From Plumapathes pennacea (taxonomy: Eukaryota; Cnidaria; Anthozoa; Antipatharia; Myriopathidae), in the NCBI GenBank assembly GCA_964036295.1, contig OZ038470.1, positions 13,707,578 through 13,771,577 on the forward strand: a stretch of 64,000 nt of DNA, written 5' to 3'. Under the pieces are notes generated by a model, which had not been told where the DNA came from, did no database searches, and saw only the letters and a list, made by a program, of their open reading frames with translations. Positions 505-46,200 of this stretch are shown here, one piece after another (positions within the stretch are counted from its first letter, which is position 1; each line of letters begins with the position of its first letter). Position numbers and translations under genes: made by a program.

Positions 505-588
505 ATGAAGTATCACAACCCTGCAATTGAAGGAGAAAAACACCAACCTGTTGACCTGGACCAAGCTTTAGATTTCAGTGGAGAATAA
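505..588 (+). CDS. Terminal exon of a gene whose 5' part lies left of the window (possible fifth member of the peptide array)
   Basis: A strong acceptor (pyrimidine tract ending TTTTCAG at 498-504) opens a 27-codon exon in phase 0, ending with TAA at 586-588. A poly(A) signal AATAAA follows at 711-716, with a T/G-rich stretch just after it. The encoded tail is acidic (PVDLDQALDF, SGE end). No signal peptide or cysteine-loop exon is visible upstream in the window, so the gene would begin beyond the left edge. Exon length, phase 0 acceptor, acidic composition and strand resemble the second exons of the peptide genes at 7.7-9.8 and 10.7-11.4 kb, which supports membership of the array. This is inference: the diagnostic exon 1 is not seen. 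Confidence 0.45.
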   Translation: MKYHNPAIEGEKHQPVDLDQALDFSGE

Positions 589-3057: not shown

Positions 3058-3470
3058 CGCCCCCCGGGGGGGCGGGTACTCCCATATATAAGCCATTTCG
3101 GTATGTGCCGCCCCAAAGGGTATCGTTTTCAAGCATTTTTAGTCTGAAATAGGGTATCGATTTTGTCTTTTTGGTCTGGGATAGGTATGATTTTAACAGA
3201 AATATGTCGCCGCGGACATTGCACGGCAAATGGAAGAAAACACAGAGCGGAAATCGTTGCAAAAGAACAAAAAATCTCTAAACAAAGGTCTGAAATAGGG
3301 TATACATTTTGAAGTCAGGTCTGAAATAGGGTATACATTTTTGGAGTCAGGTCTGAAATAGGGTATAGAAAATCAAGTATTTTGATCCGAAATAGGGTAA
3401 GGGTTTTCAGGACCGGGCGGCACACCCCCACCCCAAATTATAATGGGTGCCCCCCCCCCCCCCCCGGGTT
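3058..3470 (+). repeat. Dispersed repeat with internal 'TCTGAAATAGGGTAT' units, copy 1
   Basis: Starts with a C/G homopolymer run, then GGTACTCCCATATA and GCCGCCCCAAAGGGTATCG, contains several diverged units of TCTGAAATAGGGTAT, and ends GGCACACCCCCACCCC followed by a C run. Other copies: 30973-31465, 33911-34228, and a remnant at 17232-17345. No coding capacity seen. Confidence 0.7.
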
Positions 3471-3697: not shown

Positions 3698-3892
3698 ATG
3701 GATTTGAGGATTTTTGCCCTCGGTTTCGTGATATGCCTCGCTCTTGGATTAATCCAGGGTCTTCCTGAAGCAGCAGAATGGTCTGAAACACAGGGAGCCG
3801 AAAAAGAAGGAATCCGCAAAGAACAAAATTATGCCAGAGGAGGTTGTTTATTTGGTAGATGTCGTCGGCGTAAAAGTAGAAGTTTAAGAAAG
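3698..3892 (+). CDS. Secreted short-cysteine-loop peptide precursor 1 (C-x-F-G-R-C family), exon 1
   Basis: Start chosen at 3698 (Met-Asp-Leu-Arg) rather than the upstream Met at 3608, because it places a hydrophobic signal peptide (about residues 4-21) at the N terminus. Then come an acidic spacer (residues about 23-36) and the core GGCLFGRC near residues 48-55, followed by RRRKSRSLRK. The two Cys can form a six-residue ring. A donor AG|GTGAGC follows at 3893 in phase 0. The last exon is uncertain. Candidates are 4742-4813 (acceptor TGTTTTCAG, 23 residues then stop) and 5810-5848 (acceptor TTTTTACAG, 12 residues then stop). Without splicing the frame stops at 3934. Family unrecognised; secretion is predicted from the sequence, function is unknown. 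Confidence 0.7.
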
Positions 3893-3934
3893 GTGAGCCA
3901 CTCAAATCTTCCTAGAGGTTGTAACGAACGTTAA

Positions 3935-6900
3935 CTTAAAAGTACTATTGACACTTTCACTGCACCACAGTAAACCTCACTGCTAGAAGAATTGACTTCT
4001 GTATTTGGTTTGGTTGGCCCAGAACAGGATGATCAAAGTAAATTATAGTTTTTTTGTTGTGAACATTTGTTAAGACAAATCAATAGATTTACTGGCCTGA
4101 TAGATGAATTTTTGTCAGAGTGGTCCAATTTGAAACTAAAGCCTGCACACGTTGTGAGGAAAACTACGTATGACTCGAGTTCGTGAAGATACAACAAGTC
4201 AAGGTTCTAAAAGCAGCGGGTTACTGATAACTTCTTATCTTCTTGTCGCAATATGTAAACGGTCTAGTCACTACTTCTTTTTTAAGTATATTATCCACTC
4301 TGAAGCTTTATCAAGGAATGTAAACGATCGCCTCGGAAGCCAACTACTGTACCGTGAGATTTTGGTTATATTCTCCCCCCGAATACAAGTCAAACTCGCT
4401 TTTGCACGTTTTGAAACACAGCCAAAGAGCAACTCGGAATTGGCCTGTTAAAACCTAAACGAGTCAAAGGAAATGTCAGTACAGTATTCAGCTTATGTTT
4501 AATTTATATAATCTGACATTTTGCAAGAACTTAATTTTATGGTTCACGGCCAAAGGCTGAGACCTAAATAATAAATTATGCGAAGTTAATTATGCATGAC
4601 GTTGTAGCGGAAGCATTTGGCCGTAAAGCGGTCGATATTTTCACGCTAAATAGCGTCACGGAGACAAATTAAAGCATCGTTTGGATTGATGATATGTAAA
4701 GTAAGTCTTGTTTGAAAGAAAGTTATCGTTTCTGTTTTCAGAATTTTGGTTTGAAAAGGTGCAAAATGAAGTATCGTGTTGTTAAAGGCAACATTTTAGT
4801 GGCAAACTTTTGAATTTTGTAATTATGGAACGACAATGTCTTGATAAATTTATCCAGTTTGCTTCTGGTGGTGAAAGTAACACAGTGAATAGTTTCCTCT
4901 ACCTTCCATTTCGATTTACGTTCAACTGGTTCGTGCGTTTCTTCGACGTGAATCCGAACCATGCAGCATCGAAAGATGACAAGAAGAATCGAAACCACAA
5001 CACCACACAAGATATTATTGAAAAGTTTACTTTTTATATTTCGCGCGGAGCAATTTGCCATAGTTATTATACTGGCAGCCGCGGCCAAATCGCGGGCGCG
5101 AACTTTCATGACGTCATGTACAAATTCAAGACTGCATCCGATTTGCCGACAGGCCGTGAACCATAAATTTGGTCACAGAAACATGACAACAACATGTCTG
5201 GGAACAACAATCAACTGAGCGAAGCATATAGATAAAAAGATTCAAGTAAGATACACAAGCAATCGGCAACCTGCCAACAATGTTTTCTGTCTGGCTCATT
5301 AGACCTCAACAGGCAACGGACCAGTCTCACAAGTTGCGCCATAAAAGCTAAAATATGAATTAAAGGGGTCCTCTCGACCACAATTCCTTGCGAGCCGAAA
5401 CCCTTGATCAGCCATTTTTTCAGAAACCTGGGTATAAAAAACCGCTTTCACAATCATACGCAGTTCGTAAAGCGCAGATGTTCTAATAGGCCACCTGACA
5501 ATAAAGGTTCGCGGGAATAGTGGATAACTGATTGTTTTGGTGCAATTATGCATATTTTAGAAACAAGACCAAGCTCTACAGAGAGATTTACTTCACAGAA
5601 ACTTGCTTATGTGTGGGGGAGTAAAAAGTGCTATTTGCTACTACGCATGGTTGTGAAGGTGGCTTATAGAACGCAAGGTTTGGCAATCCATTTCCATCAG
5701 ACTTGTTCGATGGTAAAATTGGTTTCTCGTTTGGTGTTATAAGAGTGTGTTATTTATTTATTTATTTCATACTAAGAAGCATACGTAACGTGCACTCGAG
5801 TTTTTACAGAACTTTCTCCACAATATGCAAAGAAAATCATCGGACTAGCTGTGAGAGAACACCTTGCAAATCCTATTGCGCGCACTATTATTTATCATTT
5901 ATCATGTATTCGCAACGTACCTAAAACGATGTCTCTTTATCTGTACTCACATTTGAATTTTGAGCAACAGTTTTGAGCCCTCAATACGTATCATTATGAA
6001 TATATAAACAATAAACTACTTTTAGCGAGGAAATATGCACGGATAATTGTCCGAGGATATTATCTGTTCCGAGAAACGAACAGTTGCCCGAGAGCGAAGC
6101 TCGAGGGCAACTGTGAGCTTCGAGGAACAGATAATGTCCAAGGACAATTATTATCCGTGCATATTTCCGAAGCCAAAAGTAGTTTATTGTCTTTATTATC
6201 CTTCAAATATTTCCTCTCGCAGCGCAAATAACGGCGCGGAAACTGTGAAACTTTTTAGTGTTTTCTGGAACTGCATTTTTGACCAACAAACTGATGTCCT
6301 CCTCAGTAGTCGTCTTGTAATGATTTTTGTGACTAAATAAATAGGACTGTGTTCGGATATTGTCAATAAACAGCGTTAGTTCGCCAGGCGGGGGTTATTC
6401 GCTGATAACGTCCGCTCACGAGCGGACGTTATTCGGTCACGTGTCACGATTCTACCAATCACGCGTGAGGGGGGGGGGGGAATATTTGATGGTTCATAAA
6501 CACATATCAAGTACAAGGAAGGAGTTCAACTGTTTCCTTCCCAAGCCAAATAACGCAGAGAAAATATAATACGTAGAATATTCACAGTTTGAGCTAGCAT
6601 GTATAAGGTTTCCGTTTCAAACAGAGTGCAAAATTTTGAGCAAGGAATTAGGTCATCTCAAATCCAATTGTAGGAGGATTGACTTTTTGGTGACTATATA
6701 CCTATATTTAGTGAGTGCCTGTGTGTCTGTCTCCGTTTACACTTCAGAAAATATAATGGCAATAACTCCAATGTAGCCGCGATTAATGCCATACTCCAAG
6801 GACATGTTTACCATTTGCGAACTTTGAAATGAATGTTCCTTCGTAAACAGCTGCATTTTCGTATTTGATGTTATGCGACAGAAACTCAGTTCACTTTATT

Positions 6901-7460
6901 GCGAGCCGGATTGTATAAATATTATGCTATTGTCGTTAGGGAAGTAGATACCCCACGGTCGCCAGAAAAGGGACGAAGAACGTTCATGCTCGGCAAATCC
7001 GTGTCGGACGAAATGCGTCTAAACACTCCGCCTACGTCAGAGCCTTCAAACTTGTTTCCCGCCTTATCCAGCGTGGGGACAATTTTCAACAGAGCACACC
7101 TTACTCTGTTTCTCAAGCTCTAGCGCACAATATTTTCTACTTTTAGAAATTTTGTTTCATGTGATGATAATTTACCATCGAAAATGTCGGGCGCCTTTAA
7201 AATGGAACATGAATATTCTGAGGCGCAAATTTAGACCTGTTAAGTCTCGATCTGCAATTAATATTAAGTGGGCATTTACACCCGCCTATTAACTTATTCA
7301 AACCTCTGTCTGAAAGGGCAACTAATTTTGCTGAAAGACAAATAGATATTATGTGAATAGGATCTTTTGTTAAGAGTTTGTTAACAGTATACCATTGGAA
7401 AAGGATCAAGGAAAATCGTTTCAATACTCATTTATATGTGAGAGATTATATAGAGTAAGC
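3935..7460. other. Region between peptide genes 1 and 2
   Basis: Should contain the 3' exon of peptide gene 1 (candidates 4742-4813 and 5810-5848) and a foldback element at 6006-6195. Otherwise AT-rich, with a G run at 6470-6480. I found no further cysteine-loop exon and no conserved coding exon. Confidence 0.5.
6006..6195. mobile_element. Foldback (palindromic) element of about 190 bp
   Basis: The left arm begins AACAATAAACTACTTTTAGC and the right arm ends as its complement (CCAAAAGTAGTTTATTGT). The arms pair almost throughout, including ATATGCACGGATAAT against ATTATCCGTGCATAT, around the centre GAGCGAAGCTC. It is non-coding and MITE-like. The AATAAA at 6010-6015 lies inside its arm. Confidence 0.7.
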
Positions 7461-7697
7461 AACATGTTATAAAAGTCATAAATTGGAAATTTACTGAACA
7501 TCGACTTTCATGAACATTTATTGAATTTCAGTACACCTGCTTGAACACACGGCGCGCTTCTATTGATTTGTTTCCCGCCCAGTGAGAATCATTTAATATC
7601 CAGTGCAAATTTTAAATATTCTAAAGCAGTTAAATGACGACAAGTTGAAAGTAAATTTTACTCCACTGAGGAAGCTCTTTCAAACTAATCATCGATC

Positions 7698-9325
7698 ATG
7701 CAAGTCAAGAAAATTGCCCTTCTTCTCGCAGCATCTGCGCTTGTTCAGTTCTTTGGGAAGTATCATTCTGCCGATGCACTTGAAAAAAGCGACGACGAAA
7801 GTCTAGAGTTTAAGCGATCGAAGCTCAGGCCTCCTTGCATTTTCGGCCGATGCCAGCCGACGCGAAAACCTCGCAGATCATTGAGGGTAGGTCCAGAAAA
7901 AGTATTCAAGAATTATTTGTACTTCAGTGTACATTATTTTTTGCTATATCAATGAAGAGTTTAGTTTTGGCCATTAAACCAAGATTAATTTGTGAGCCAC
8001 AGACCATGTATACAAATTTACTTGGTGTAAAGCTTCTACAAAGTTCCCCCAAATCACTAAGTAGTTAGCTTTTTTTAGATATAGACATAGATGAACTGTT
8101 TTGTATTATTCGGTCAGTTGGCGCGGTTGAAATGTTATATTTTTTTAGTGACATCACATTTAGAGAAAAGTAGGCGGAAAAACATTGATGGACAACAAAG
8201 AAAATTTTCGAACAGATGTAAAGTAGTAATTATTGTTTTCTGATGAAATAGTAATGCGCATAAAATTTTTATCGCACATCTTTTAGTGTTCGTTTCGCAA
8301 TTCTTACAGCGATTTCAGATAAAGGTGTAGAATATCACTGAAAACTAACGCAAAATCGGAACTGAGTTCAAGAAACGTTTGCAAAAATTTTACATGGGAA
8401 ATATTGGACTATTCAACGGGTCATAATATAGGTCTGTTTTACTGACCTTGCATTTAATAGAAATTGTCGATCTGTATTCAATTTCTTTTCGTACATTTTA
8501 CTATAAGTTCTGGACCACAGCGTTTGTTAAAATTTAATGCCGTATTTGCTGGTCAAACTATTTATAGTTAGTTTTTTCGCTGGTGCTCTATCGGCGACTC
8601 GTTTACGTTATTTCTTTAAGAAAAAAAATTGTGGGGAAGAGTCATGATTAAACGAACAGCTTTTACACGGCTTTTTCTATTACCGGCTGGACTTCATTTT
8701 GTTTAGCAATTTGACATATTGTTTTCCATACCAAAAGGACCGCATTAAAAGCTAGTTGTGATAACTTTCCATGATTGGGTATTATATTTTACCTTCTGCA
8801 CATCGAAAATGAAAGAAAATTGAATATCACGCTTGTAAAACAACGCTGCAGGCGATTTGTTTGATGCTAAAACTGAATGCAAAATTGTTCGTTCACAGCA
8901 AGAAAATTGTAAAGAAAGCTGCTGAAACCACCATTCAGTCAAACGGAAACATGGCTAGAGCATATCAATTCATTTGCTTCAAGAATGATGATCTCTTAAT
9001 TCCTTTAAATAAATAATGGTTCTGCCTTACTGTGTTGTGTAAAGTGGTCTACAGAACTAAGGCAATGTGCATATTTTGTAGGACAAAGTATTTTGCCTTT
9101 GTTTTTCATTCCGCTTTACGAGCCGAGAATATCGGGCAATTTGCCCGTTTTGTGCGTTGCTTTCCGTGAAACAAATGTAATTTATGTCAGAGAACTTAGA
9201 CTGGCAATAATATGGAAGCTTTTTAAACTTTAATCGATGTCTTAACTTTCACCATAGAAAGGAAACGGCATCGAAACGTGGTTTTGAATGCGTGTATCGT
9301 GTGACTTTTTGACGCAATTTTAACT

Positions 9326-9372
<47 letters not shown>

Positions 9373-9756
9373 CCGGTATTCCCCATAGTTTAACCAGTTT
9401 AGTAAAGTCCTTGCCTGTCCAAATAAAACTTAGAAAGTTAAAAATCCATTAACAATGCTAAACAACAACGTGAATGAACGCAGCCTTTATAACGTTGTGA
9501 CAGCGCCCGAGTGACTTTAGGTTGTCTTGTAGGTTCAACCACATCGTCTTTGGCAGTGAGATCATTAAATCATTTTTGTCTCTGTTTTTCTTCTTTTACA
9601 ATCTTCTTTTCATCATTTTGTTATCTTTGCCTTTCTTAGGCTTCTTGTTTCTAACTATCTAACTATCTTACGTTTCTCGAACAGGAAAGGGTTCCATTTG
9701 AAGACCCCAAGTTCTTTGAGAGCCCTGTCGACATGAGAGATCCCGCTTATCGCTAA
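7698..9756 (+). CDS. Secreted short-cysteine-loop peptide precursor 2 (two exons)
   Basis: Coding exons 7698-7886 and 9685-9756, total 86 residues. Donor AGG|GTAGGT and acceptor CTCGAACAG join in phase 0. Residues 1 to about 20 form a signal peptide (KKIALLLAASALVQFF). An acidic stretch (EKSDDESLEF) follows, then a dibasic KR, the core LRPPCIFGRC, and a basic tail QPTRKPRR. KR before and RK/RR after the loop are typical prohormone-convertase sites, so a short cyclic peptide may be released. Exon 2 adds an acidic tail containing VPFEDP. The poly(A) signal AATAAA is at 9874-9879. This is the clearest family member. It could be a neuropeptide, antimicrobial or venom-type peptide; the sequence does not decide. 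Confidence 0.75.
9329..9371. repeat. (GT)n microsatellite
   Basis: About 21 uninterrupted GT units inside the intron of peptide gene 2. Confidence 0.95.
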
Positions 9757-10664
9757 CTTTTGACGAATCACAAAGACTACAGTATAGCACTGCAAATGCA
9801 AAAGAAAGTCCACTTTTATGTCAGATTGTCACACATCAGTTAATGACCCAACTAAACTAAAGTGTATAAGGTGAATAAAACTGGAGAAAACTGCTATGGA
9901 GGGCGTCATTTACTTATTTGTTGATATATATACATGTCCGGCTTGTAGCCGCTAAAACGTTTTCCGTTTAAAATTTGGTTTCAGTTTCGACAGCCGGGTT
10001 TTTTGGTCTGAGTGAAATTAATCTTTTTAACTTATTGCTTTTCTAGTTTCAATAACACAATCAAATATGTACTGGAGGAAACTAATTATAAATATTATTT
10101 ATACTGGTATATAGAAATATATATATAGTTGATCAGTACTGCAGCAATCATGGCTAATGAGCATGATTGTTTCCAACCAGTTTAACTGTTTTTAAGATTT
10201 GAAAATATGAAAGACATGAAGGTGTTTCCACCTGTTTCCATGTACGTTGGTAAAGGCATGAGATTGCTATAAAAATGGGGGCTGTCGATTATTTGTGATA
10301 ATACATATAACACGTTCATTTGCAAGAAGAATAACCTTTAATGAGCTAAACCTTGGATGCTAAACTATTCTGACTGATATCACCTGCACTTATAGACCAC
10401 TCGTTATAGCGCTTTGTGTTACTGTCATCATTTTGTAGAAAGATAATTTTCTTTTTTTTTTTTTCCTAACTCGTATTTGGCTGCTAATTTAATCTTATTT
10501 TGTTCAAGTGTTTTCCTCTACTTCCTAGCATTGCCGGTATATGAAAGGGGTCGGTGAATGCCCAAATTGTCTAACCCGACATCGGTTAGGGGAACTATTG
10601 AATCTGACTAATTTTTCCACAGGAAACGATTTCAAGAACTGACTGTAAGAATTAGCAATTCCTG

Positions 10665-11391
10665 ATGAAGCAAGCGAGGCTAATGATGATTCTACTCCTG
10701 TTGGAATATTTTATAACAACTATGAGTGAAAACGACATATCTGTCCAAGAAAGCGACAGCGAGAAAATATTAGTTCATACAAGGACTATCAGGCCGTTGT
10801 GTTCCTTTGGAAGATGCCGGCGTCGACGAAGTAGCCCAAAATCGAAAAAGGTACGTGAGTCGTCCTATAAAGAGGGCAACGCCATACTACGTTTAACGGC
10901 TGTAATTAAATCTGGGGCCCCGTCCAAACGAATCCGTTTTCGTTTGAAGACGCATACTTTTATGCGTTTTTACTTTCCGTCCACACTGAAAGTGGAGGTT
11001 TTCAAAAACGGTTCCCAAAGTGCCGAAAACTTTTTCAACGGTTTGAAATAAAGGCGTTGGCGCAAGCACTTGGAAATTCTTGTTCGAAGTAATTCTGCAA
11101 CTAACGAAGTCCGCGGTGAGACTTCTAAAAGTTTCCATTGCTAAAATAAAATTACAGTGCAAGGTGTAGATGTGACAACACAGTCAGTTGCTGGAAGAGA
11201 TATATGACGGGTTCAGAAAAAAAAATGTTAAAACTAGTTTCAATCACACGAAATTATAGACCTTGGTTTGATCGCGATCACGTCATTCAAACCTAGAAAT
11301 ATATAACTATATCGCAAATACAAACTTAACTAAAAATCGTTTTCTTTGTTCACAGGTTAAAGTGACATTTGAAGATAAAGCCGTTGCATAA
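10665..11391 (+). CDS. Secreted short-cysteine-loop peptide precursor 3 (two exons)
   Basis: Coding exons 10665-10850 and 11356-11391, total 73 residues, joined in phase 0 (donor AAAAAG|GTACGT, acceptor TTGTTCACAG). The signal peptide covers about residues 5-20 (rich in Leu, Met, Ile). An acidic spacer (SENDISVQESDSEK) precedes the core RPLCSFGRC and RRRRSSPKSKK. The second-exon tail VKVTFEDKAVA shares V-x-F-E-D with gene 2, which supports both splice calls. The poly(A) signal AATAAA is at 11423-11428. A good acceptor (TTTTTCCACAG, ending 10622) lies just upstream of the ATG, so the leader probably contains an intron. Function unknown. Confidence 0.72.
10905..11170. mobile_element. Probable MITE remnant in the intron of peptide gene 3
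   Basis: Begins GGGGCCCCGTCCAAACGAAT and holds paired motifs such as CGTTTTCG and CGAAAAC, typical of hAT-like non-autonomous elements. The right end is not clear, so the boundary is approximate. Confidence 0.35.
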
Positions 11392-11629
11392 CTGTCAGGA
11401 CTTCGACGGAGAAAGAGCGATTAATAAAGTAATACAAATCAAAAATGGGGAAAAAGTAGTTTCTATTAACTATTAGTAAGATGCATGGAAATGGTTGCGG
11501 TTTTCTTTCGAGTTCGAGCTCATGAAAATGGCAGTAGAGAGAGTTTGGCAAGTTGAAGCAAATTGCATCTGAGCTTTTCAGTTAGGGAAATTGCAAGAAT
11601 TTCTTGCAATAAGTTGTGGTCGACATGGC

Positions 11630-11882
11630 TCGGCCAGGGCAAAACGAGGACACATCGGGGCGGCTACAGTGTGCCCTTTGATGTTTCCAGGATGGCAAAA
11701 AGTGCGGCAACATTGCTGCGCTCAGCGAGAACACAAAAAATGTTTCTGAATTTTTACAGAAACTTTTTTTTTTTTTTTTTTTTGGCGTCCAGAACACAGA
11801 TTTGTGTCCGCAACAAATGTTTCGCGCGCGGCAAAACGGGGCAGCATTTAGGAAATGTCCTCGTTTTGCCAGGTCTAATGTC
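11630..11882. mobile_element. Dispersed foldback repeat, copy 1 (pairs with 62650-62908)
   Basis: Shares long stretches with 62650-62908: GGCAAAACGAGGACACAT, GATGTTTCCAGG, CAGAACACA and GTCCGCAACAAATGTTTCGCG. Its ends are inverted (GGGCAAAACGAGGACA and TGTCCTCGTTTTGCC). No coding capacity. Confidence 0.7.
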
Positions 11883-11889
11883 CGCTTAA

Positions 11890-12720
11890 TTTGGGGGAAA
11901 CTTGAATTACTTTATTAGGGGTCGGTTTGCCCAGATATTAAATATTCAACTGCGCTCACATTTACGTGCGTCTTTACAATTTGCCGGGAAGCTTTTGAGC
12001 CGAAAATGGCCAGATGCTAAGATGGGAAATTAGATAAAAAGAGAAGTCAAAAATAGGGACCAGAATAAGAAAAGAAAAGAAACCTTAAAATAATTAACTG
12101 ACGTTATTTTGAGACGTTCCAAACCGCCGTATTATTGACTTTAATTAATTAATTATAGATGGGGCGCAACACAAGAGGGATTAATTCCTTATAACTGACG
12201 TCATTGCTATGACGTCAAAGGAATTAATATGTTTAATCAGCTTACTAAATCATTTTGATGCCACACCCTGCGATTATAATCACTCTTGATGTGTGAATAT
12301 GCATGGAGGCTGAGCTAAAGATAGCCGAAAGTTAAAATTCTGAAGAAGACTGTTTGTTTTTCTACCCCTTAACAATTGCGGAAAACACCGACCGCAACTG
12401 CTTGAAAGCCGAAAGTCGGTAAAATGCTCGTTGTTTGCTATCAATAAATTTGCCCAGAGCCATCTTTTCCTATATTCGCACAAAGGAAAGTTATAATAAG
12501 AACTTGTTTTGCCGAGGAAATGCACGCGGATCAGTTGAATGTGAATCAGTTCCGAAAGCAGAAGTTGTTTGCTCTACAGTTTTGTCCTTCAAGTAGTTTC
12601 TCTGCATTGTCTGATTTGCGTCACTTGTCATGATTTCTCCAATCCCATGCGATTGAAAACATGGTGGATATCAGTCATTTGTGGGCGTTAAACATCCATT
12701 TTCCGGAGAAAGTTTCAAAG
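11890..12720. other. Intergenic region between peptide genes 3 and 4
   Basis: No gene recognised. Contains a short inverted motif TGACGTCATTGC / ATGACGTCA near 12195-12216. An antisense C-G-R-C string occurs here, but it lacks a signal peptide and splice sites (see rejected items). Confidence 0.5.
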
Positions 12721-13597
12721 TAGTTATATAAAGCATACTAACCGAAAGCGAGTTCATTACCTCGATAAATTCAGAAAGGGTGTTTGTCAAGTACAATCTG
12801 TACTATCATTTAATTTGCAAGTGAGTCCTTTAAAATGTCATTGTTGGGAGTTTGACCACAAACAGTTCAAATAAAGAACGATTTATTCTTACTTTTCAAC
12901 CCCGGGAAAGGCAGGCGGCTGTGTAATGAAGTTTAAGCTTATAGTAAACTGCTGGTCAAACCAGTAATTCAGTGAGATTCTAATTGGAATTACTCTGAAC
13001 ATTCGTTAGTGAAACCTCAGTACAACTCAAATGAAAGCTTTCTACGAGTGCACGATGTTCAGTGTTATTTCGGAAACTTTCCCATTTCCCAACTCTGGTG
13101 GAACACGGAAGTGGAAGGAGCTAGTTGCAGCAAACCACAGCCATATTTTAAGTACTATTCAAACGTACAAAGCTGAAATTAAAATGTAAATGCAAATTCG
13201 AACAACTTTCAACTGGTAACAAAACTCAAAACGCATAATATAATATCATATCTAAAAACAGGTCTGAGAGGGAAAGCGGTAATAAATTCAAATACTCAAT
13301 GGAGCCGCAGGTACCCACGAAAGCCTCTTGAGACCTTACCATAAATTGCGGCCGTTAAATAGAAGAAACACCGCCTGCTAAGTTTAGTTCATTCAACAGG
13401 AAATTGCGTTTAGACATCGCCATCTTTAAAGGGAACTTAACGCGGACTACAAACATTGTAATGAGATTGGCATTGGAAATTCTCAATAAAAAAGACTAGC
13501 AAATAACCCAAACTTCACATGTGTATGGCAGCAGCCAGTAGTCACTTGCGCAGAGTTTTGAAAGAGCCCGCTGAGTACTAGCTACCTATCGCCAAGG

Positions 13598-14270
13598 ATG
13601 AACCATTTGAAGCCGTCAATCTTGATTGTGTTTGCTTTACTTTTCTCCGAAATCGTACTCTGTTACATGATCAACGCTGAAGAACCGGACACGAGTCGCC
13701 AGGTTCTTCGAAAACGCGCTGACAGACCGCCCTGCGGCTACGGCCGCTGCTGGAATAGACGAAGACGTAGACGACAGACAAAGGGTAAGTTCTCAGCTCG
13801 AGCTAATGTATAGGTTACAATGAATTTCAGTTTGGAAAATTTCTTTGAAGTTCTATATGTAATGTTTCGAATCAAGTGATAAACTGCAGTGATGCCAACA
13901 ACAAGTTTTGTTAGGTTGAATTAATGAGTGCACGTGCATTTTATTCAATTCAAAACGTTTTAGAGGCCAATCCCCTCACTTGCCTTTCTCCTTCCTTTTG
14001 GGGCGGGCGAAGGGGGTACTTTTAAATTAAGGACACTTTATTTGTAGTAACTGAGTTGTCGTTGTCATAATCCCACAGCAGCTTTGCTGTAATTTTACAC
14101 TATAAATAAATGATGCTATTCTTGTATTTATTATTAATTAAAAGTCCTTGTCGGTTATACTCGTTTAACTTAATTTGTATCATAAAAACTGACTAATTTA
14201 TTACTTTTTTTCAGACCCTTCAGGCCAACATCTTTTTTCTAAAGGATTCTTCACAACTAATAAGTTTTGA
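13598..14270 (+). CDS. Secreted short-cysteine-loop peptide precursor 4 (two exons)
   Basis: Coding exons 13598-13784 and 14215-14270, total 80 residues. The signal peptide covers about residues 7-22. The spacer ends LRKR, a good processing site, followed at once by ADRPPCGYGRCWN and a run of six Arg. The loop carries Tyr where its paralogues have Phe. Unlike genes 2 and 3, the intron must be in phase 1 (donor AAGG|GTAAGT, acceptor TTTTTTTCAG). The second exon (starting within DPSGQHLF) lacks the F-E-D motif, so it may be diverged or replaced. A poly(A)-like ATTAAA is at 14357-14362. A TATA box at 12725-12733 and a donor-like GCAA|GTGAGT at 12822 suggest a spliced leader exon. Confidence 0.7.
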
Positions 14271-15084
14271 TGAGATGAACAGCATGGGCTGGTCCACTTG
14301 CTGCTTGGAATAGATTACAAAAATCAAGAAGAAAATAACAAATGTAAAACGACTGAATTAAAACACGTTTATTTGTCAACCCACAGACCTGATCAGCGTT
14401 CACAACACGTTACAATATTACACCATTTAGAATGGTTTACCTGACCCAGTCCTCCACGTACCCTTCTTACCTAGCAGATTCAGAAACGTCCACGTCTTTA
14501 TCACTTTGTCTTGTCTTCGTCATTCTTGCCTTTAATACGTAACACGTTCTTTTTGGATAACTGCATGCTATTCAATTTATCGAGAGGAGAATTTTCTTGT
14601 TGCTACTGATCGCTTATCCTCATCCTGACAAGTTAGGAGAGTCTGGACGCGCAACATAACCTTTTCCCTCCCAAGAGTGATCAACTTCCATTTCAGTTCG
14701 CCAACTATAGTAACTAAGGCTGGTAAAACACTTTCAATCAACCAGAATTCAAAGCAATTTGCACGGTATACATGATTTTACTTTGAAGAACAGCTGACCA
14801 ATCGGCAGCCGTGCAATAAATCTGTAATTGATTTGCCGCCGTTGAAAGAGCTGCAGTTATCGAGCGGTTCATTTTAATAGCACGCATGGACGTTTTTTAA
14901 ACAAGGCGCCAATCTCACTGCAAAGCCGCGGACGTAAGAATTGCACCGAGATCGCAACAATGTATGCCCCCATGTGAGCCCCTAGCTTCTGTTGTACCCA
15001 GCTGTACCTCATCAATTCAAAAACGTGATAATAGGGTTATAAGACACCTTGCTTTTTGGCGTGATGAGTTATTAATTTTCGTCA

Positions 15085-18143: not shown

Positions 18144-21100
18144 ATGAAGGACGTCTTGCCTATTTTATTTATTCTCCTTCTGGGAGCTGTGGATTTTTTC
18201 AGTTGTTCAGCCGCAACACTTGGAGGTGAGTCTTCAAACTCATAAATATTTGTAAATTAGACAAAAACTATACTCCATCGCACAACTACTTTAATGTGTG
18301 CTTTTTGTTCCGAGGCTACAGACTGTTATCTAATTTTCGCTTAAACAGTCATCTACCTGTGTACACAAGCAGCAATTTATAGCTTAAAAGTTCAATTAAG
18401 CCACTGGTTATCTCATATTTCAGTTGCACGAAAGGACATAAAACTGGATGTATAGTTTTCGCAGTCTTTTTCTTTTCATAGCTCGTTTGCCATTTCCCCG
18501 TGGCATTTCAGATGTGATTTTAGACAAGATGCTTTGTTCCATACAAACAGCATTCATATGTCCCGCTGCTTACTTGTCTAGACTTTTATTTGTCCTCAGT
18601 AAAAGATACGTAGCGAAAACACTGATGCACGAAATTGTAAGACCCTAACACAAATGCATCGTTTTCTCTCAACAGAACGCAGCGATTTGATCGAAGGAGA
18701 CATTTATATCGGAGACAAAAACACCAGGTCGATTTTGCGCACTTTGAGTCACCGCCGAATTACCAGGAATGCACTGTTGAATCCCCTTCTGCTATGGCCT
18801 AACGCAAAAGTCCCGTATCGGTTCGGGGTAGGACTGAGTAAGTGCGGACTCGCATTTTTTACGTTGTTTTTTTCTGATCTTTTCGTCACATTCATTCCGC
18901 GACATCCATTTCCTTTCAAGCCTGTACAATACGTCACTGTGTAAATCCTCTTCTGGCCTTATTGTTTACTTTGAATATGCAGTATGAAGAGGAATTTGTA
19001 CAAGAAATTTTCATTCTGAGAACCGTGTAACTGGAGGGGCCTTAGTCCTAATCCAATTTGAGTTGTGTTTTCAAATCGCAAAAAAACCGTTCCCGGCCCG
19101 GATTCCCTGGAGGTCCGGTCAGTGTTTTTACCCTGGAAATGTGTAAACCTGAAAGTTGATTGTCAGATTGGTTACAAATTGCTTTCGGGGCCGAGCATGG
19201 TGAGCAAATTAAGGGCCTGCACACAAAGGACTGATGTTGTCAAGAGGCGGCACCAGTGAGTTCATATACCGACTGTGGGATACTCCTATATGCTGTTGTC
19301 TTATCTGGTTCCGTTCCCATCGCAGGTAAGAAGACAAAATATATTTTCAAACAGGCTATCGATGATCTCGAAAAATACACGTGCGTGAGATTCGTGCCAA
19401 GGACGAATGAAGTGGACTATGTCTACATTGTAAGCGACGGAAAAACGTAAGTTGAAGTTGTTGTAAATTCCATGGTAATTTCATTGTCGTCCTTTTTCTG
19501 GTCTTTGCTACTTGCTCTCTTTTTCCTTTTCTCATTTTCATTCTTACCTGTTATTTTTCTCCTTCTCCTCTGCCCTTCTTTTTTATTTTCTATTTTTTAC
19601 TCTTGCCCCAAACATTGATGATAATACAGTCGAACCCCGCACGGCACATGAAAAAAGTTCGAAATAGCGAGGTTTCAAAATAGCCGATAGTAAATGACTG
19701 AAAAATATATCCACAGGGATTCGGCTTGACTTCGAAATAACGGGGATTTCGAATTATCCGAGTTCAAAATAGCGAATTTACTGTATTTATATTTTGCTAC
19801 GATTTCAATCTCTAATCCATTCCTCATGCTCATAAATTTTATGCGTTGATAAGCGAGTTCAATTTCTTGTCTAACCAGTTTGCTTATATCATCTAATGCA
19901 GGTGCTACTCAGCCATTGGTCGAAGCCGAGGAATTCAGCAATTGTCTCTTGGATCTGGATGTGCAGTGAAGGGAATAGCCATTCACGAGCTCATGCACTC
20001 TATTGGATTCTTTCATGAACAGTCCCGCCGTGACAGGGATGATTATGTGACCATCCAATGGAGCAACATCGATAAAAGTAGGTCACTTGACACATATTTA
20101 ACCAATAGGTGATATATATTCAAACTTATCCAGGAATGAAAGGGTTAAATGGCATCCTAGTTTGGCCTAAGCTTCCTTTGAACAACTGGGCAGCAATTTA
20201 CTTCAGTTCAACACAGTACAACATTTGATCAAATTGTGTTTGTCCTTAATTCCTACAGCTCAATATCGGAACTTCCAAAAGTACAAACACGGCCAAGCAG
20301 ACGGACAAGGCCAGAAGTACGATTACTCGTCTCTCATGCACTATCACAAGTACGCGTTCTCTAAAAACCGTCGTGCTACGATCGTCCCTAAACAGTCAGG
20401 TGTTTACATCGGGCAGCGACAAAGACTGAGCAGCATTGACATAAAGAAAATTAACAAGCTGTACAAATGTGGCGCCGAGTCGACGACAATGCAAACAACA
20501 ACAGAAGCAACAACAACAGCCGAACCGACCACGGTAGAAACCACCACTGTGGCACCAACAACGGAAAATGCACCTACTACAAAAGGTACTAATAGCTCGT
20601 TTCTTCCCTAAATCAGATGAGAGTCATAGTCTTCAGAAAGAATGTTGTTTGCTTGGCCGGAAGTTATGTTTTGCTGTTTAGCACACAACCACAGATATTC
20701 TGTCGTCGGAGGTTGGCTGTGACGGCAATGGAGATATAATCAATTGATATCAATGTCATGGAAAATAATGCTTACATTGACGTGTTAGTGACATTGGCGT
20801 CGTTGATAGCGTGCAGGAAATCATGTGACGTCATTTGACGGTGACGGCTGTTAATGACGTAAAAGTATTATCATTGACTTGGTTTTTTATAACAATTATT
20901 TATTTATTTATTTTTTTTTTTTCAGGACAATGCGCCAACCGGCACCGTTACTGTCAATTTTATGCCTTGTTCGGATACTGCAGACACCGAAACTCGTATT
21001 ATAAATTGTTCATGTATCACTACTGCAAGTTGACTTGTGGCTACTGTAAAAAAGGTTAGCACAATACAATTCAATTCTGAAACTCTTATCTGCCAAGTAA

Positions 21101-30972: not shown

Positions 30973-31465
30973 CGGGGGGGGGGGGGGGGGGGGGTACTCC
31001 TATGAAAAGCCATATGGGTATGTGCTGCCCCAAAAGGTATCGTTTTCAAGCATTTTTAGTCTGAAATAGGGTATCGATTTTGCCTTTTTGGTCTGAAATA
31101 GGGTATCGATTTTGTCTTTTTGGTCTGAAATAGGGTATCGATTTTGTCTTTTTGATCTGGGATAGGTATGATTTTAACAGAAATATGTCGCTGCGGACAT
31201 TGCACAGCAAATGGAAGAAAACACAGGGCAGAAATCGTTGCAAAAGAACAAAAAATCTCTAAACAAAAGTCTGAAATAGGATATACATTTTGGGGTCAGG
31301 TCTGAAATAGGGTATACATTTTTGGAGTCAGGTCTGAAATAGGGTATAGAAAATCAGGTATTTTGGTCTAAAATATGGGGTAAGGGTTTTCAGGACCAAG
31401 TGGCACACCCCCACCCCAAATTATAACAAGTGCCCCGCCCCACCCCCCCCCCCCCCCCCCCCGGC
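30973..31465 (+). repeat. Dispersed repeat with 'TCTGAAATAGGGTAT' units, copy 2
   Basis: Same order of motifs as 3058-3470, with extra tandem GGTATCGATTTTG units at 31040-31160 and long G and C runs at its ends. Confidence 0.75.
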
Positions 31466-33910: not shown

Positions 33911-34228
33911 GCCCAAGGGTGAGGGGGGAGGTGATACTCCCATATAGGTATGTGCCACCCCAAAGGGTATCATTTTCAGCATTTTAGTCTGAAATAGGGT
34001 ATCAATTTTAACCTTCAGTCTGGAATAGGTTGGAGACTTGTTATTTGGTCTGAAATAGGGATGAAAATTGCAAATTTTGGTCTGAAATAGGGCTGAAAAT
34101 CGCATTTTTTGGTCTAAAATATGGTCAAAAATTACAAATTATGATCTGAAATAGGGTAAGGGTTTTCAGTCCCAGGCGGCACACCCCCACCCAAAATTTT
34201 GAGGAGTATCCCCTCCCCCCCCCCCCAG
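33911..34228 (+). repeat. Dispersed repeat with 'TCTGAAATAGGGTAT' units, copy 3
   Basis: More diverged than the copies at 3.1 and 31 kb but with the same order: ACTCCCATATAGG, CACCCCAAAGGGTATC, several CTGAAATAGG units, GGCACACCCCCACCC, then a C run. Confidence 0.7.
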
Positions 34229-39670: not shown

Positions 39671-40247
39671 GCTACAGTTATCCTGTAGATTGATTTTTTG
39701 CTCAGTAAATGCCGCGTCTATCAGTTATAAGGGTTTATATTTCGACATGACTGCTAATGACACAATCTTTTAATGTGCGAAAGCGTGTTGGTGCAGAAAT
39801 ATGATTGCTTTCCTGAATCCAAAAACAAATTTAATCACGGAGAGAGGAATAACAGGAAATTTCGCAGTTGACTTAACGGTGTTAGCTTATTTGCGAGAGA
39901 AATTCTCCACCAGGTTTTGCTCCTGATTGGCCGAGAATGCTATTATTGTCAGGACCAATCCGAAAGCGTAGAAAACGCACGGGCAATCACACAATTACTT
40001 TCGACGACTTTCGACAGTTCGCCCCAAACATCAACGCTTGGGTTACCTGTGCTGAACTCCCAGACCCTTTATCCTATTTCTAGTAAAACGTCATCATAGA
40101 GCAGCAAAAACAAAAACAACAACAAACATACAAACATACAAAAAAAGAAAGACCGGAACCCAGTCCGGTTCCCAAACCCTCACACGGCCGACACGGCCTG
40201 ATTTGGTCAATTGGCCCCAGACTTTTTGTGGCCAACGCGACACAAAC

Positions 40248-43200
40248 ATGGCGTCCTGTTTGGGTTTTGTTCATGTCTGTCTGGTGTTGACTCTATCGGG
40301 AGGGATCCATTCCAAATCAGTAAAACTCCAAACTGACGATTTGTCATCGGTGAAGCACAAGGAGTTTCTCCCTCCAGATCACATCAAAGGCTTAAAATTG
40401 GAACGAGACGGTCACGTAAATGCAGACTTTCATCACGAGGCCTTCCTCGGCGAAATGATAACCGAAGGGCATCTTATCTTTGAGAACATGGACGGCTACA
40501 AAAAGCTTATCGAGATATTTCACAAGGTCGACAAAGACGATGACCACATGGTCAACAGAGCTGAACTTGCAGTGTGGATTCACGCAAGAATTAGCGAGCA
40601 TCTGCAGGAATCGAAAAAGAAAAACGAAAAATTGTTCAAGGAGGCAGATATGAACGAGGACGGGCAAGTCCACTGGAAAGAGTATCTCATGAAAGTGATG
40701 GACAGAACTTATGGGCAAAACTCAACTACAGAAAACACAACCTTGGAAGGTACTGTACAGTATGCGAAGTATTTCTCTACCTGTATTGTGTATGACGAGT
40801 ATGATGATTTACCGTAGCGTAAAGTCTATTTACTATATATAGTTTCAAGGTGGTGTTACACTGGTCGATTCGCAACGACGATTTGCAACGACGATTTGCT
40901 CCAAATCCACGCAACGGCGTTGCAAGTTTTTGAATCGCTTTCAAAAATTTGCAACGCGTTGCAGCACTGCAAACATCGCAAAAAATCGTTCGCAATGGGG
41001 TGTTACACCTCGACGATTTTTAGCGCAACATCGCATCGTTGCAAATCGTCGTTGCAAATCGACCAGTGTAACACCACCTTAAAACTATATAGTAAATAGA
41101 CTTCCATGCGAAAGAGAACGTCCCGTTATGCAAATTATAGGTATTCTAGGTATGAGAAATGCTGCATATTTTCTGCAGAGCTTAACAAGTTTTCAATTGC
41201 CATGCCGAATTTATTCGACTTGGTTTTAAACATCCTGCTATAAAATGAATTTTGCATAGCAGTGGTGTGGTGTTTGAAACGGTCTATTAACATATACCCT
41301 TATGATTGTACAGTTGAGCACACATTGTACCACTGCAGCTGCTTGGATTGAAATATTGGTTTGAGACTGAATTTTACTTTTTATTTTTTCACAATTTTAC
41401 TTAAAATCCTATCATGTTCAAAATTATGTTTTTGAAAAGTATAATATACGGTTTTTCTAAATTGCCAATTGGGTGGATACACTGTATTATGTTTTTCAAA
41501 AAATCAGCCACAATAAAGAAAAAAAAAACAAACAAAATACAATGAAATCAAATGGAATAAAATTACTAGGTTACCATATAGCGGTGTACAAGTGGTGTAA
41601 ATCATTTATTGCACAAGCAACTCATATGATCTTGTTTTATCATGTAACTATCAAAAAGTTCGCTGGGACTCAAAATTTAGACAAAATTCTCTCATTTAAG
41701 CACATGCTCTAATGTCACAGTTGACAACTTGTTTTCAAACACTGAAATCTACCTCTTGTTGGCTAAAATCATGGAAAGGTTACAGGGAGTACAGAAAACT
41801 GAACAAACTATCGGTTGCTACGGTAATATTAATTACACTTAGTGCATTTAGATTTTAAATCAGATCAGATTGCCCCCTGCCCAATTACAGCATTTTACGA
41901 TATTGCAGCGGTTTCACTTTACAGGTACTCTAGAGTTTACAGTATCTTACTGGGGGAGTATATTTTTGGGACTTCCATAAAATGTTTAAGGACAGTGTCA
42001 TGTGTATAATACAGAGCTCATTAATACAGGTTTGACAGCACACTGTACATAATTTTATTCTGGGTACAGAACTTAATTACAGTGCTATACCTTTTTCAGA
42101 AGAGACCGGGGGTCTGGAAAAGCACTATGAAGCATATGAACGAGGGGATCTGAATCAAGACGGAGCTCTGAGTATCAATGAGTTCCTTTACTTTCTTCAC
42201 CCTGAACACAATCCCAAAACTATCAAGGACATGGCAGAGGACATGATTGCTAGTTTTGATAAAAATGAAGACAAGGTAGGTTACCAAGGATATAGAGGAT
42301 GTTACACGGCGGCGTGAAGATACGAATATTATATTTTTGAGTGGTAAAAGCAATGTTTTATAAACGAGCGCTGCAGGGGGAGTAAAAATATTGTTTTTAC
42401 CATGAGAAAATATAATCCATATCTTTAAGCCACCATGTAGTTTTTGTTTTTTATCTCGCGAATTAGTATGCTTTAAATACTTAAAGCAAAATTCTGGGTC
42501 AATCCAAAGTATCTATCAGGAGCTATGGATACTGCAACAACAAAGCTGTGTGACATGCCCATGGCCAACTAAAATCGGTGCTTGCGTCTGAATTATAAAG
42601 TTTTCCTTCATGAAACATTTTAAAATTGGCACTGTGAAAGATGTGAAGTAACATAACATCAAGCTGAGTCATACATCAGCTTCATTTTGCCTTGAGCCAG
42701 TCCTATTAAATACCTACTCCCGCAAAAATAGTACTTTTTACAAATTTGCGAGATTACGGCTGCCTTGCTGCTTTGATATTATATACAGTAGACATGAGTG
42801 TTTTTTGAGAAAATGCACAAACAACCGTGCAAAGGTGGGAAATGATATCATCAATATCCACTAGTGAGGATGGGGAATACGTAGAGGATATTACACGGTG
42901 ACGCAAAGATATGAATTTTATTTTCGAGTGGTAAAGAGAATATTTTACGAACGAGCGCTTCGCGAGTGAGTAAAATATTGTTTTTACCACGAGAAAATAA
43001 AATCCATATCTTCAAGCCACCATGTAATTTTCTTTTTATTATATTAGACACGAGTGTTGTACGAGAAATTGCACAAACAACCGTAGAAAAGCGGGAAATG
43101 ATGCCAACGATATCCTCACTAGTGAAAAGAAAGTGAGGATATGGAAAATACGCCACTTGGGTCCCAGATGCAGTTTTGTATGGATTTTACGCACGGTATA

Positions 43201-46200
43201 TATTCCAGTAAAACACTTGTGTCTCATATAATGAACGCCACTCAGGTACCGGATGTAGTTTTGTATGGATTTTACACACATTATATTTTCAATAAAACAG
43301 TTGTGTCTATAAATATCTTTACTGTGAATTGTCCTTCATTTAATAAATGGGTCATGGTTTTTATTACTTTTATATAAGAGTGAAATGCCATTCATGAAGT
43401 TATGAACTAAACTGAGTGTTTCGTGGATATGCATGTAAGATATTACTAGAGTTGCACAAAAGTTATTGTAATTTTATAACATTTTTTAGAATTCCCATCA
43501 ACTGAATGTGAAGTGGTACTGTAACCACAGACTGAGTAAAATGAAAAAAGTAAAAAACACCATATCAGAGAAACAGTAGAGTTCCAGATAGTATACTTTA
43601 TTCACGTTGTGTGGTATTGGTGGTCTACAGGTTATGACAGCTAAAGAATTTGCCAGTTTGCCGGAAGGAGAGGTGGATGAATCTGAAAAGGAAGCAGAAA
43701 AGAAATATCTGGATGAGTGAGTACATGTACTTGTGTGCCATTCATTTTAGGCCATGTTTTGTATGATTTGTTGTGATCTTGTAAATTAATAGGCCTTTTT
43801 CAACAATGGCTCATGTGTCCCAAAATTAACTGACTATATGTAATTCGTTTTTGAGTACCATCAATGGATATAGCATAAAAAATATGTAGACTTGCAAAAT
43901 TTCAGGTCTATACAGTCTGTAGCAACCTTTTGAAGTTCAGAAGTATCAAGGCTGCACTCGATTAGGTATATTCCAGAATAGGACAAAAGCTTAAGTGACC
44001 CAAAGTGTTGCTTTTTCCGGGAATCATTTTTCCGAAATTGTTTTAAAAACCTTCACACTGGCACTTCGAACAGCTCCCGATGCATCTCTACCCAAGTCAG
44101 CTGCAAACCAAAGTAATTTTACCGATCAACATCGCTATTCCAGTATTCCAGAATATATGCAATCGAACGCGCCCTAAGAATATTTGTGTGGGAAAAGTCG
44201 CTGGAGGGCACTTGAGTTGTTAGGGGTTTATAAGAGGAAAACTTCCAAATGAGTGGCTCCAATGAATTCCGAAAAGCTCGGAAAGAGGAAAACTTCTAAA
44301 TGAATGGCTTCAATGAATTCGCAGAGCACCGTCATTTTGTCTCCTTAATTTGTAACTCCAATGGCCCCTGTTCATTATTGGTAGTTCTGTCAGTCAAATG
44401 AGTGAACCTTTATCATGAGGAGGAGCGTTTAACTTAGTATTGGCAGCTCAGAAACTAGAAGATAAATTTTCAAAATACGATGAAAAATGCTAGTTCCTGT
44501 GCGAACTCCTACAGTGGCGTAAAGGTAAACCTTATAACGTATCAACGTGATGTGTATAACTTAGTCCGGATAGGTTTAATGTCGATTCTCCCAACCTTTT
44601 AAGAGGAGATTGTATGAGTGATGTAGTGAGAATTCATAGTTTAATCAGCTATCATGTGAGCAAGGTACAGTATCAAAAGCCAAGTTCTCTTTACTGTATG
44701 ATATATATTTGTGCTGCCAAACCTGAAGGAGAAAATTGAACTTGATCACTCTTGGGAGTGAAAGGGTTAAGCAGATGTTTCAAGCGTTACCCTTTGTCGG
44801 AGCGAGTAGTGTAGATCTTCGAGTTGTTCTATTTCACTAAAACTGCATCATTTGACACTGGTTGTGTCTCAAAGCTGGATCTCACTTAGGCCTCTCGTGG
44901 CGAGAAATTCTCGTAAGCGACCACTTAAAGACGAACGAAGGGTGGTCGCTTAAGGGAGGTTTCATGCACTGTAGTTAAAATCTCACTTCCATGTGTCGGT
45001 TTTATACTTGTATAAAACTGGTTTGTGATTGGGTTAACTTGTTACGATTGGACCAATCTTGCACGGCAGTGGCCATGACGGACACATTACGGTATATAAC
45101 CAGTCAGAGATACCCTTCGCTCTTATAGCAATTTGAATTAATTTAAGACGGGCTCATATTTAATATTTCTATACAGGTGCATTCATACGTTATACTTTAT
45201 TTATTATTTATAGCCACGTTGTCTCTATCTACAAACTTTGAGCGTCTAATGTGTTTTAAAGATTGAACCGTTCAATGGCAAAGGTGTTTAGTGTTGAGCG
45301 ACTTGTGAAAGGGTCTTTGCGTCGCGAGATGTTATAGCGTTTCAATTATGACACTATGCCATCGCATAGCAGTTTGCCTTAGGCAAGTGTAAAGTATATG
45401 TATTTATTAAGCCTTGCACTGCCGAATGCGAATTTAACTAAACCACAAAACCACAAGTATCTTGAAAATGAAACCAAAATGTGTGACCAAATACTCTCTC
45501 AATGAGTACATTTCTGGTAGCACTTTTCACGTTATTGTTATAGGCGGACGTTTTTTATTTTTATTTTATTTTTATTTCTGCTTAATTTGGACAAAAATTT
45601 GCAAACGAAATGCTAACAGAGCCTATAAAAAGAACGACATTTTACGACATTTATTTTTTAACTGCATAATTGGAAATGAAGTCGACTCTTTTGTTAGTAA
45701 GCTCTTCTCAAGTACAATCGCGCAGTAGTTCACACGAATTCCAAATTTCGTAGGTTTTCGTGCTTCTTTTCCCTTCATGTTACTATCACGTCTTATTACT
45801 GATCCTCTGTTTTCCGTTGGAACTTGACCATGTTTGATTTGCATTAATCCACTCTAAAAGAGTCGTTTTGGCTATTGCTTGTGCGCCACTATGATTGGCT
45901 GCGTCAACTCATCACTCTGTGAAGGAAAAGAGGCAACAGGAAACATACTAGTATGATGTTGACATTCAGTTCATGATAAAGCATTGTGTCCGGAAGAATT
46001 GCTATTACATCGAAATGGAACTGAAAATTGCTTTGGCAAGGTTCAAGTTTTGCAAGGGGCCCACAAGGTCTGAACTAGTATGTGAGGGCTGGTTACCATA
46101 ATGTTTCTCATCTTCGTTTGTTGTTGGCAATTAAGATCTGCGATTTTGTTGCCCGGAATTATGTCTTGGATATGTTATTCTTGTGTGTTATTAAACTCTG

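What the first reader, a model, noticed from the sequence alone, without database searches (positions are those of the whole stretch)
3698..14270. Tandem array of an unrecognised secreted peptide family with a C-x-[FY]-G-R-C ring
Four same-strand genes, 3-4 kb apart, share signal peptide, acidic spacer, a single two-Cys ring (GCLFGRC, PCIFGRC, LCSFGRC, PCGYGRC), Arg/Lys clusters around it and an intron at the same place. Ring residues G-R-C and the aromatic position are kept while the rest has diverged, which suggests selection on the ring. Dibasic sites beside the loop in copies 2 and 4 suggest release of a short cyclic peptide. The six-residue ring matches hormone-like peptides in size only. 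Possible roles: neuropeptide, antimicrobial or venom component.
Basis: partly seen in the sequence, partly recalled or inferred. Interest (0 to 1): 0.9.

Follow-up and report, generated by a model that had tools for sequence, protein, structure and literature searches.

The report
Cluster of small ring-peptide precursor genes
A row of at least five small genes, probably from a coral or sea anemone relative, encodes secreted precursors that share a tiny two-cysteine ring and little else; they may release short ring-shaped peptides for signalling or defence, and no described relatives were found.

Summary
The window holds four same-strand genes with a signal-like N-terminus, spacer, single C-x-[FY]-G-R-C ring, Arg-rich flank and a splice donor after the ring; chance gives 0.05 ring motifs per window. 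A scan blind to the ring letters re-found all four plus a fifth copy 0.8 kb upstream of the window, ring CAFSRC. A probable sixth lies 8.75 Mb away on the same contig, ring CGFSMRC. Across the six, the core R-x-x-C-x-[FY]-[GS]-(x)-R-C is 62% identical, signal regions 22%, spacers 10%, and conserved residues often use different codons. Pfam, NCBIfam, PDB and a 5.8-billion-protein set gave no credible match. Best reading (0.45): precursors cut at basic sites to release short, non-amidated cyclic ligands. Main rival (0.30): cationic host-defence peptides in a fast-evolving cluster. Expression, processing, disulfide and function are untested. A new family of a known general kind.

The parts
3698..3892 (+). 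copy 1 (c1) exon 1: signal-like region, spacer, ring CLFGRC, RRRKSRSLRK; donor GTGAGC
4742..4813 (+). c1 exon 2, one candidate only, not settled
   Evidence: acceptor scan; no similarity to other second exons
7698..7886 (+). copy 2 (c2) exon 1: ring CIFGRC; donor GTAGGT
9685..9756 (+). c2 exon 2, preferred model (ERVPFED...)
   Evidence: best of 9789 start-anchored pairs, with c3 exon 2
10665..10850 (+). copy 3 (c3) exon 1: ring CSFGRC, RRRR; donor GTACGT
11356..11391 (+). c3 exon 2 (VKVTFEDKAVA, stop); AATAAA at 11423
13598..13784 (+). copy 4 (c4) exon 1: ring CGYGRC, WNRRRRRR; donor GTAAGT, phase 1
14215..14270 (+). c4 exon 2, predicted; ATTAAA at 14357
505..588 (+). predicted exon 2 of the fifth copy (c0), whose exon 1 (L035:9190-9402, ring CAFSRC) lies just upstream of the window; AATAAA near 711

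Best explanation
At least five tandem two-exon genes (four in the window, one just upstream) and a probable dispersed sixth encode secretory precursors of about 73-98 residues (predicted splicing). Shown from sequence: a signal-like N-terminus, a fast-diverging spacer, a kept core R-x-x-C-x-[FY]-[GS]-(x)-R-C, a basic run at or within three residues of the second Cys, and a splice donor 10-17 codons after the ring. Inferred: the two Cys form a six- or seven-residue disulfide ring; furin-like or prohormone convertases cut at the basic residue or residues lying 5-8 residues before the first Cys and at the basic run after the ring; carboxypeptidase trims the basic ends. This frees a cyclic peptide of roughly 11-15 residues with a free C-terminus, ending at the ring Cys in four members and two or three residues later in c4 and c2, which acts outside the cell as a ligand, neural or paracrine, through a specific receptor.
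For: Six members share the core while signal region and spacer have diverged: 62% against 22% and 10% mean pairwise identity. Kept residues are encoded by different codons in 6-9 of 7-15 residue-sharing pairs per column, so protein, not DNA, is held. c0 was found without using ring letters and still has R(-3), F3, R5 and the six-residue ring. Kept leader with variable mature part is the usual pattern of venoms and many defence peptides (recalled); here it is the reverse. AlphaFold predicts only an N-terminal helix, as expected of an unfolded precursor.
Against: No amidation Gly, against the cnidarian norm of amidated peptides. The basic site before the ring is di- or tribasic in only 3 of 6 (c1, c2, c4) and a single R or K in c0, c3 and d1. 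Runs of up to six Arg exceed what processing needs. The GS/ring-size variation and free position 2 loosen a strict pharmacophore. No expression, peptide or receptor data. d1 was found through similarity to c0, so its core match is partly due to how it was found.
Confidence: 0.45

Rival explanations
1. Cationic host-defence (antimicrobial) peptides: an acidic or neutral propiece precedes a highly basic ring-plus-Arg region that, once released, binds and damages microbes or shapes the microbiome.
For: Ring-to-exon-end net charge +7 to +10 in 6 of 6, propiece -3 to 0. Hydra AMP families are described as small, secreted, bipartite in charge, fast evolving, taxonomically restricted and clustered with similar exon-intron structure (PMC10945409 passages).
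Against: Leader diverged and ring kept; few hydrophobic residues beside the ring; the same paper describes a complex cysteine pattern for most Hydra AMPs, here only one pair; propiece neutral in 2 of 6.
Confidence: 0.3
2. Venom or secreted toxin-like peptides made by nematocytes or gland cells.
For: Small secreted Cys peptides in a tandem array in a likely anthozoan.
Against: Only one disulfide, conserved ring rather than conserved leader, no match to any Pfam or NCBIfam model.
Confidence: 0.08
3. Secreted cationic peptide that works whole and unprocessed, for example binding mucus, matrix or polyanions through the Arg run.
For: Arg is kept in the tail through mixed AGR and CGN codons.
Against: Does not explain the kept aromatic, Gly/Ser and ring Arg; tail 34% identical against 62% for the core.
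Confidence: 0.07
4. Chance open frames or dead genes.
For: No transcripts or homologues available here; the bare ring motif is at chance level genome-wide; tblastn links among members are weak (best non-self E 0.08).
Against: Ring-blind scan: 5 hits in 94 kb, all in the array on one strand; 0 of 31 loci chosen for the ring pattern pass; 100 window shuffles give mean 0.19, maximum 2. Exon-1 frames are open in 6 of 6.
Confidence: 0.05

Closest known systems
Hydra antimicrobial peptide families (periculin, arminin, Hym-357-like)
   Same: Small secreted precursors, bipartite charge in 4 of 6 members, clustered paralogues with similar gene structure
   Different: Here one Cys pair only, and no sequence match was found; Hydra sequences were not compared directly
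Anthozoan single-copy neuropeptide precursors (Antho-RWamides)
   Same: One peptide per small precursor and several paralogous genes per species (PMC7523074 passages)
   Different: Those peptides are amidated, linear and directly follow the signal sequence
Oxytocin/vasopressin
   Same: Cys1-Cys6 six-residue ring size in 5 of 6 members
   Different: No Pro-x-Gly-amide tail, no Cys-rich neurophysin in exon 1 or in the predicted second exons, ring not next to the signal peptide
Urotensin II and somatostatin-type peptides
   Same: Small disulfide ring with an aromatic residue, non-amidated end (recalled)
   Different: No Trp-Lys core in 6 of 6 rings

Membership tests
Oxytocin/vasopressin | six-residue Cys1-Cys6 ring (passage) | tested here: met
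   5 of 6 members; d1 has seven residues. Size only; disulfide not shown
Oxytocin/vasopressin | amidated tail after Cys6 (PRGamide-like; passage, rest recalled) | tested here: not met
   residues after Cys6 are RRR, RRR, QPT, RRR, WNR, RRR
Oxytocin/vasopressin | Cys-rich neurophysin downstream (recalled) | tested here: not met
   no further Cys after the ring in exon 1 in 6 of 6; predicted second exons have none except one Cys in c1's unsettled candidate
Urotensin II / somatostatin | Trp-Lys in the ring (recalled) | tested here: not met
   0 of 6 rings
Cnidarian amidated neuropeptides | Gly followed by basic residue as amidation site at the peptide end | tested here: not met
   the only Gly followed by Arg near the core lie inside the ring or before it; none follows the second Cys before the basic run
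Cnidarian amidated neuropeptides | often several copies per precursor | tested here: not met
   one ring per precursor in 6 of 6; single-copy precursors also exist in this group
Hydra-type antimicrobial peptides | bipartite charge | tested here: inconclusive
   propiece negative in 4 of 6, neutral in 2 of 6; ring-to-end +7 to +10 in 6 of 6
Hydra-type antimicrobial peptides | antimicrobial activity | not testable with these tools
   needs synthetic peptide assays
EGF-like or other Cys-rich domain fragment | further Cys around the ring-like piece | tested here: not met
   only the two ring Cys after the signal region in 6 of 6; no Pfam domain above cut-off in the five given

The most novel reading that the evidence does not exclude
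An anthozoan class of non-amidated cyclic signalling peptides, R-x-x-C-x-[FY]-[GS]-(x)-R-C, encoded one per precursor in a tandem array and easily missed by screens built on amidation sites or repeated cleavage sites. Its ring would have converged on oxytocin-like size and be read by its own, still orphan, receptors.
Probability: 0.3. Interest if true: 0.75.

Novelty: new variant of a known kind. Interest (0 to 1): 0.5.

Why it matters
Cnidarian neuropeptide screens lean on amidation sites, repeated cleavage sites or known precursors (PMC11087051 and PMC7523074 passages), and one states that non-amidated peptides were outside its reduced database (PMC6756747 passage). Single-copy, non-amidated ring peptides could be missed. 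If real, the family offers candidate ligands for orphan cnidarian receptors, or a new host-defence family relevant to anthozoan microbiomes. The ring, not the leader, appears to be what selection holds, so short synthetic peptides give a direct test.

Tried and rejected
Protein-set searches with an alignment of four exon-1 translations (59 candidates, none at E <= 10) and with a ring-centred alignment of six (no candidate sharing three words) found nothing. The method needs shared exact 5-residue words, so this does not show absence.

Pfam (five members given), NCBIfam (six) and PDB (profile of six) gave no credible match: Pfam's best was a signal-region hit on c1 below cut-off, NCBIfam one hit at E 0.096, PDB three at E 3 to cellobiohydrolases/glucanase. 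A paper search for six ring hexapeptides listed one paper, on cyclotides in Viola (listing only).

The bare ring pattern was rejected as a genome-wide family finder (213 against 233 control; a C-x-[FY]-[GS/R]-R-C-R-R version gave 16 matches against 14 control). The 31 loci fetched around ring motifs elsewhere (one, 30) held no such architecture; the translated contexts printed there cover 19 of 31, the other 12 printed 'none' because the match was not found at the centre on the fetched strand. The scan itself covers both strands.

tblastn against the own genome: c1 found only itself; c2 and c4 found only c3 besides themselves, E 0.22 and 0.08; c0 found c3 (E 1.1) and d1 (E 1.6); d1 found c0 (E 2.8); c3 found c4 (0.11), c2 (0.25) and seven C11 hits at E 1.6-4.4. 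The C11 hits were rejected: printed frames show no ring or signal peptide. d1's E-value is thus no better than noise; it is accepted as probable on architecture only (signal-like N-terminus, ring, CRRRRS, donor GTAAGT, acceptor with a short exon 2). A consensus-like core query found c3, c4 and c2 only, missing c0, c1 and d1.

Local alignment of candidate second exons is dominated by noise; only the start-anchored comparison singled out c2/c3, and d1 against c2 ranks 122 of 9789 there. My first c2 exon 2 (8310-8330) was dropped.

Script slips: c4 donor one base off (so its c4 tails are in the wrong frame); c0 exon 1 six bases too long (with four more bases' worth of frame, 73 aa); d1 exon 1 three bases short; corrected. 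The shuffle keeps dinucleotides only approximately (walks of at least 99% length were accepted).
Full report
What is there. The window is C9:13707578-13771577 of a 290 Mb, 24-contig genome. A GPCR frame at 46175-47212 (-) has its nearest named relatives in Actinia tenebrosa (53% identity), then Oculina, Acropora and Montipora (43, 42, 41%), with an unnamed relative at 81%. The host is therefore probably an anthozoan; this rests on that one gene.

The four copies. Exon-1 frames at 3698-3892, 7698-7886, 10665-10850 and 13598-13784 encode signal-like N-termini, a spacer, one two-Cys ring and an Arg-rich flank. The ring DNA motif occurs four times against 0.05 expected. In the whole genome it is at background (213 against 233 for the reversed control), but with a preceding R-P-[P/L] and one mismatch allowed it is found three times on the + strand and never on the other, all three in this array; the reversed control gives 0 and 2.

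More copies. A scan that asks only for a hydrophobic N-terminus, one small Cys ring of any sequence and at least seven Lys/Arg around it found five frames in 94 kb (window plus 30 kb upstream): the four, and a fifth, c0, at L035:9190, which starts 811 bases upstream of the window and 4.5 kb upstream of c1. Controls: 0 of 31 loci that carry the ring motif elsewhere, and 100 shuffles of the window with mean 0.19 and maximum 2. A looser scan (six Lys/Arg, larger rings) over the window, 30 kb upstream and 20 kb around d1 gave nine frames: the six members and three unrelated ones, of which one is a piece of the GPCR and one looks collagen-like. c0's ring is CAFSRC. tblastn with c0 pointed to d1 at C9:4956859-4957050, ring CGFSMRC followed by RRRRSGRSK. 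Its E-value is not significant; I accept it as probable on architecture, including donor GTAAGT and a following acceptor.

Gene structure. All six have a GT donor 10-17 codons after the ring; phase 0 in five, phase 1 in c4. Second exons are short. Those of c2 (9685-9756) and c3 (11356-11391) begin alike (ERVPFED / VKVTFED), the best of 9789 start-anchored candidate pairs, which supports a shared two-exon gene. Other second exons are not recognisably related, and that of c1 is unsettled. Intron lengths in the preferred models are 1102 (c0: the 1096 plus the six bases of my exon slip), 1798 (c2), 505 (c3), 430 (c4) and 255 (d1) bases (coordinates).

Selection. Mean pairwise identity over the six is 22% in the signal region, 10% in the spacer, 62% in the ten-column core and 34% in the tail. 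Invariant in the core: R(-3), C, R and C. The third ring residue is F in five and Y in one; the fourth is G in four and S in two; the second is free. Where two members share the residue, codons differ in 8 of 15, 9 of 15, 6 of 10, 6 of 7, 9 of 15 and 8 of 15 pairs for R(-3), C1, F3, G4, R5 and C6. The five array units share only two very short DNA matches, 18 and 26 bases (units ended at the first exon-2 models). So the duplications look old and the ring appears held by selection on protein. c0 is the unbiased case, since its ring letters were not used to find it; d1 was found by similarity to c0.

Mechanism. Shown: precursor architecture, ring conservation, a basic run at or within three residues after the ring, basic residues 5-8 residues before it (di- or tribasic in c1, c2, c4; single in c0, c3, d1). 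Inferred: disulfide, cleavage, trimming, receptor. AlphaFold on c3 with the six-sequence alignment gives a confident N-terminal helix 2-27 and nothing else (mean pLDDT 67.8, pTM 0.32); this fits a precursor without a folded domain but proves little. I favour a released non-amidated cyclic ligand (0.45) because the ring is kept and the leader is not. A host-defence peptide is close behind (0.30): the charge layout and gene clustering resemble what is described for Hydra AMP families (PMC10945409 passages). The two are not exclusive: Hydra's Hym-357-like family is described there as neuropeptides with antimicrobial activity.

Against known families. Not oxytocin/vasopressin (amidated tail and neurophysin absent), not an amidated cnidarian neuropeptide, not an EGF fragment. 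No credible match in the protein, family, structure and ring-letter paper searches; these are weak for small, fast-evolving peptides. Papers: PMC7523074 abstract and passages; PMC9545775, PMC6756747, PMC11087051 and PMC10945409 passages; the searches were seen as listings with starts of abstracts. Neurophysin, urotensin and somatostatin features, convertase and carboxypeptidase processing, and the usual kept-leader pattern of venom and many defence peptides are recalled.

Verdict. A real and intact gene family in this genome, probably functional, new as a family as far as these searches reach, but of a known general kind. Its role is undecided.

Noticed in passing
window 46175-47212 (-): Intact single-frame class-A GPCR (7tm_1), 104 relatives at E <= 1e-5, nearest named Actinia tenebrosa. 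No evidence that it is the receptor for the ring peptides.
   Followed up: partly
window 20171-20611 (+): Astacin metalloprotease exon with a Thr/Glu-rich tail (Pfam Astacin, E 2.5e-21).
   Followed up: partly
window 42036-42317 (+): EF-hand-like exon, just under the Pfam cut-off; with similar frames at 40056-40817 and 49960-50241 it may be one calcium-binding protein gene with the GPCR inside it (my reading).
   Followed up: partly
window 6002-6196: Palindromic element between c1 and c2: arms 6043-6095 and 6099-6151 (81% complementary) and outer arms 6002-6026 and 6172-6196 (88%), like a short inverted-repeat transposon.
   Followed up: no
window 3140-3407, 31053-31348, 34044-34156: A dispersed tandem repeat of about 32 bases, 'GTCTGAAATAGGGTAT...', occurs at three places, once directly upstream of c1.
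   Followed up: no
window 56703-57128: A 7-base tandem repeat (ATAGAAC, about 61 copies, 97% matches) leaves long open frames in three - strand frames that are not genes.
   Followed up: no
L067-L073 (C11:11050605-11122367): Seven near-identical tandem copies of an unrelated charged, Ser-rich frame within 72 kb, found only by composition match to c3.
   Followed up: partly
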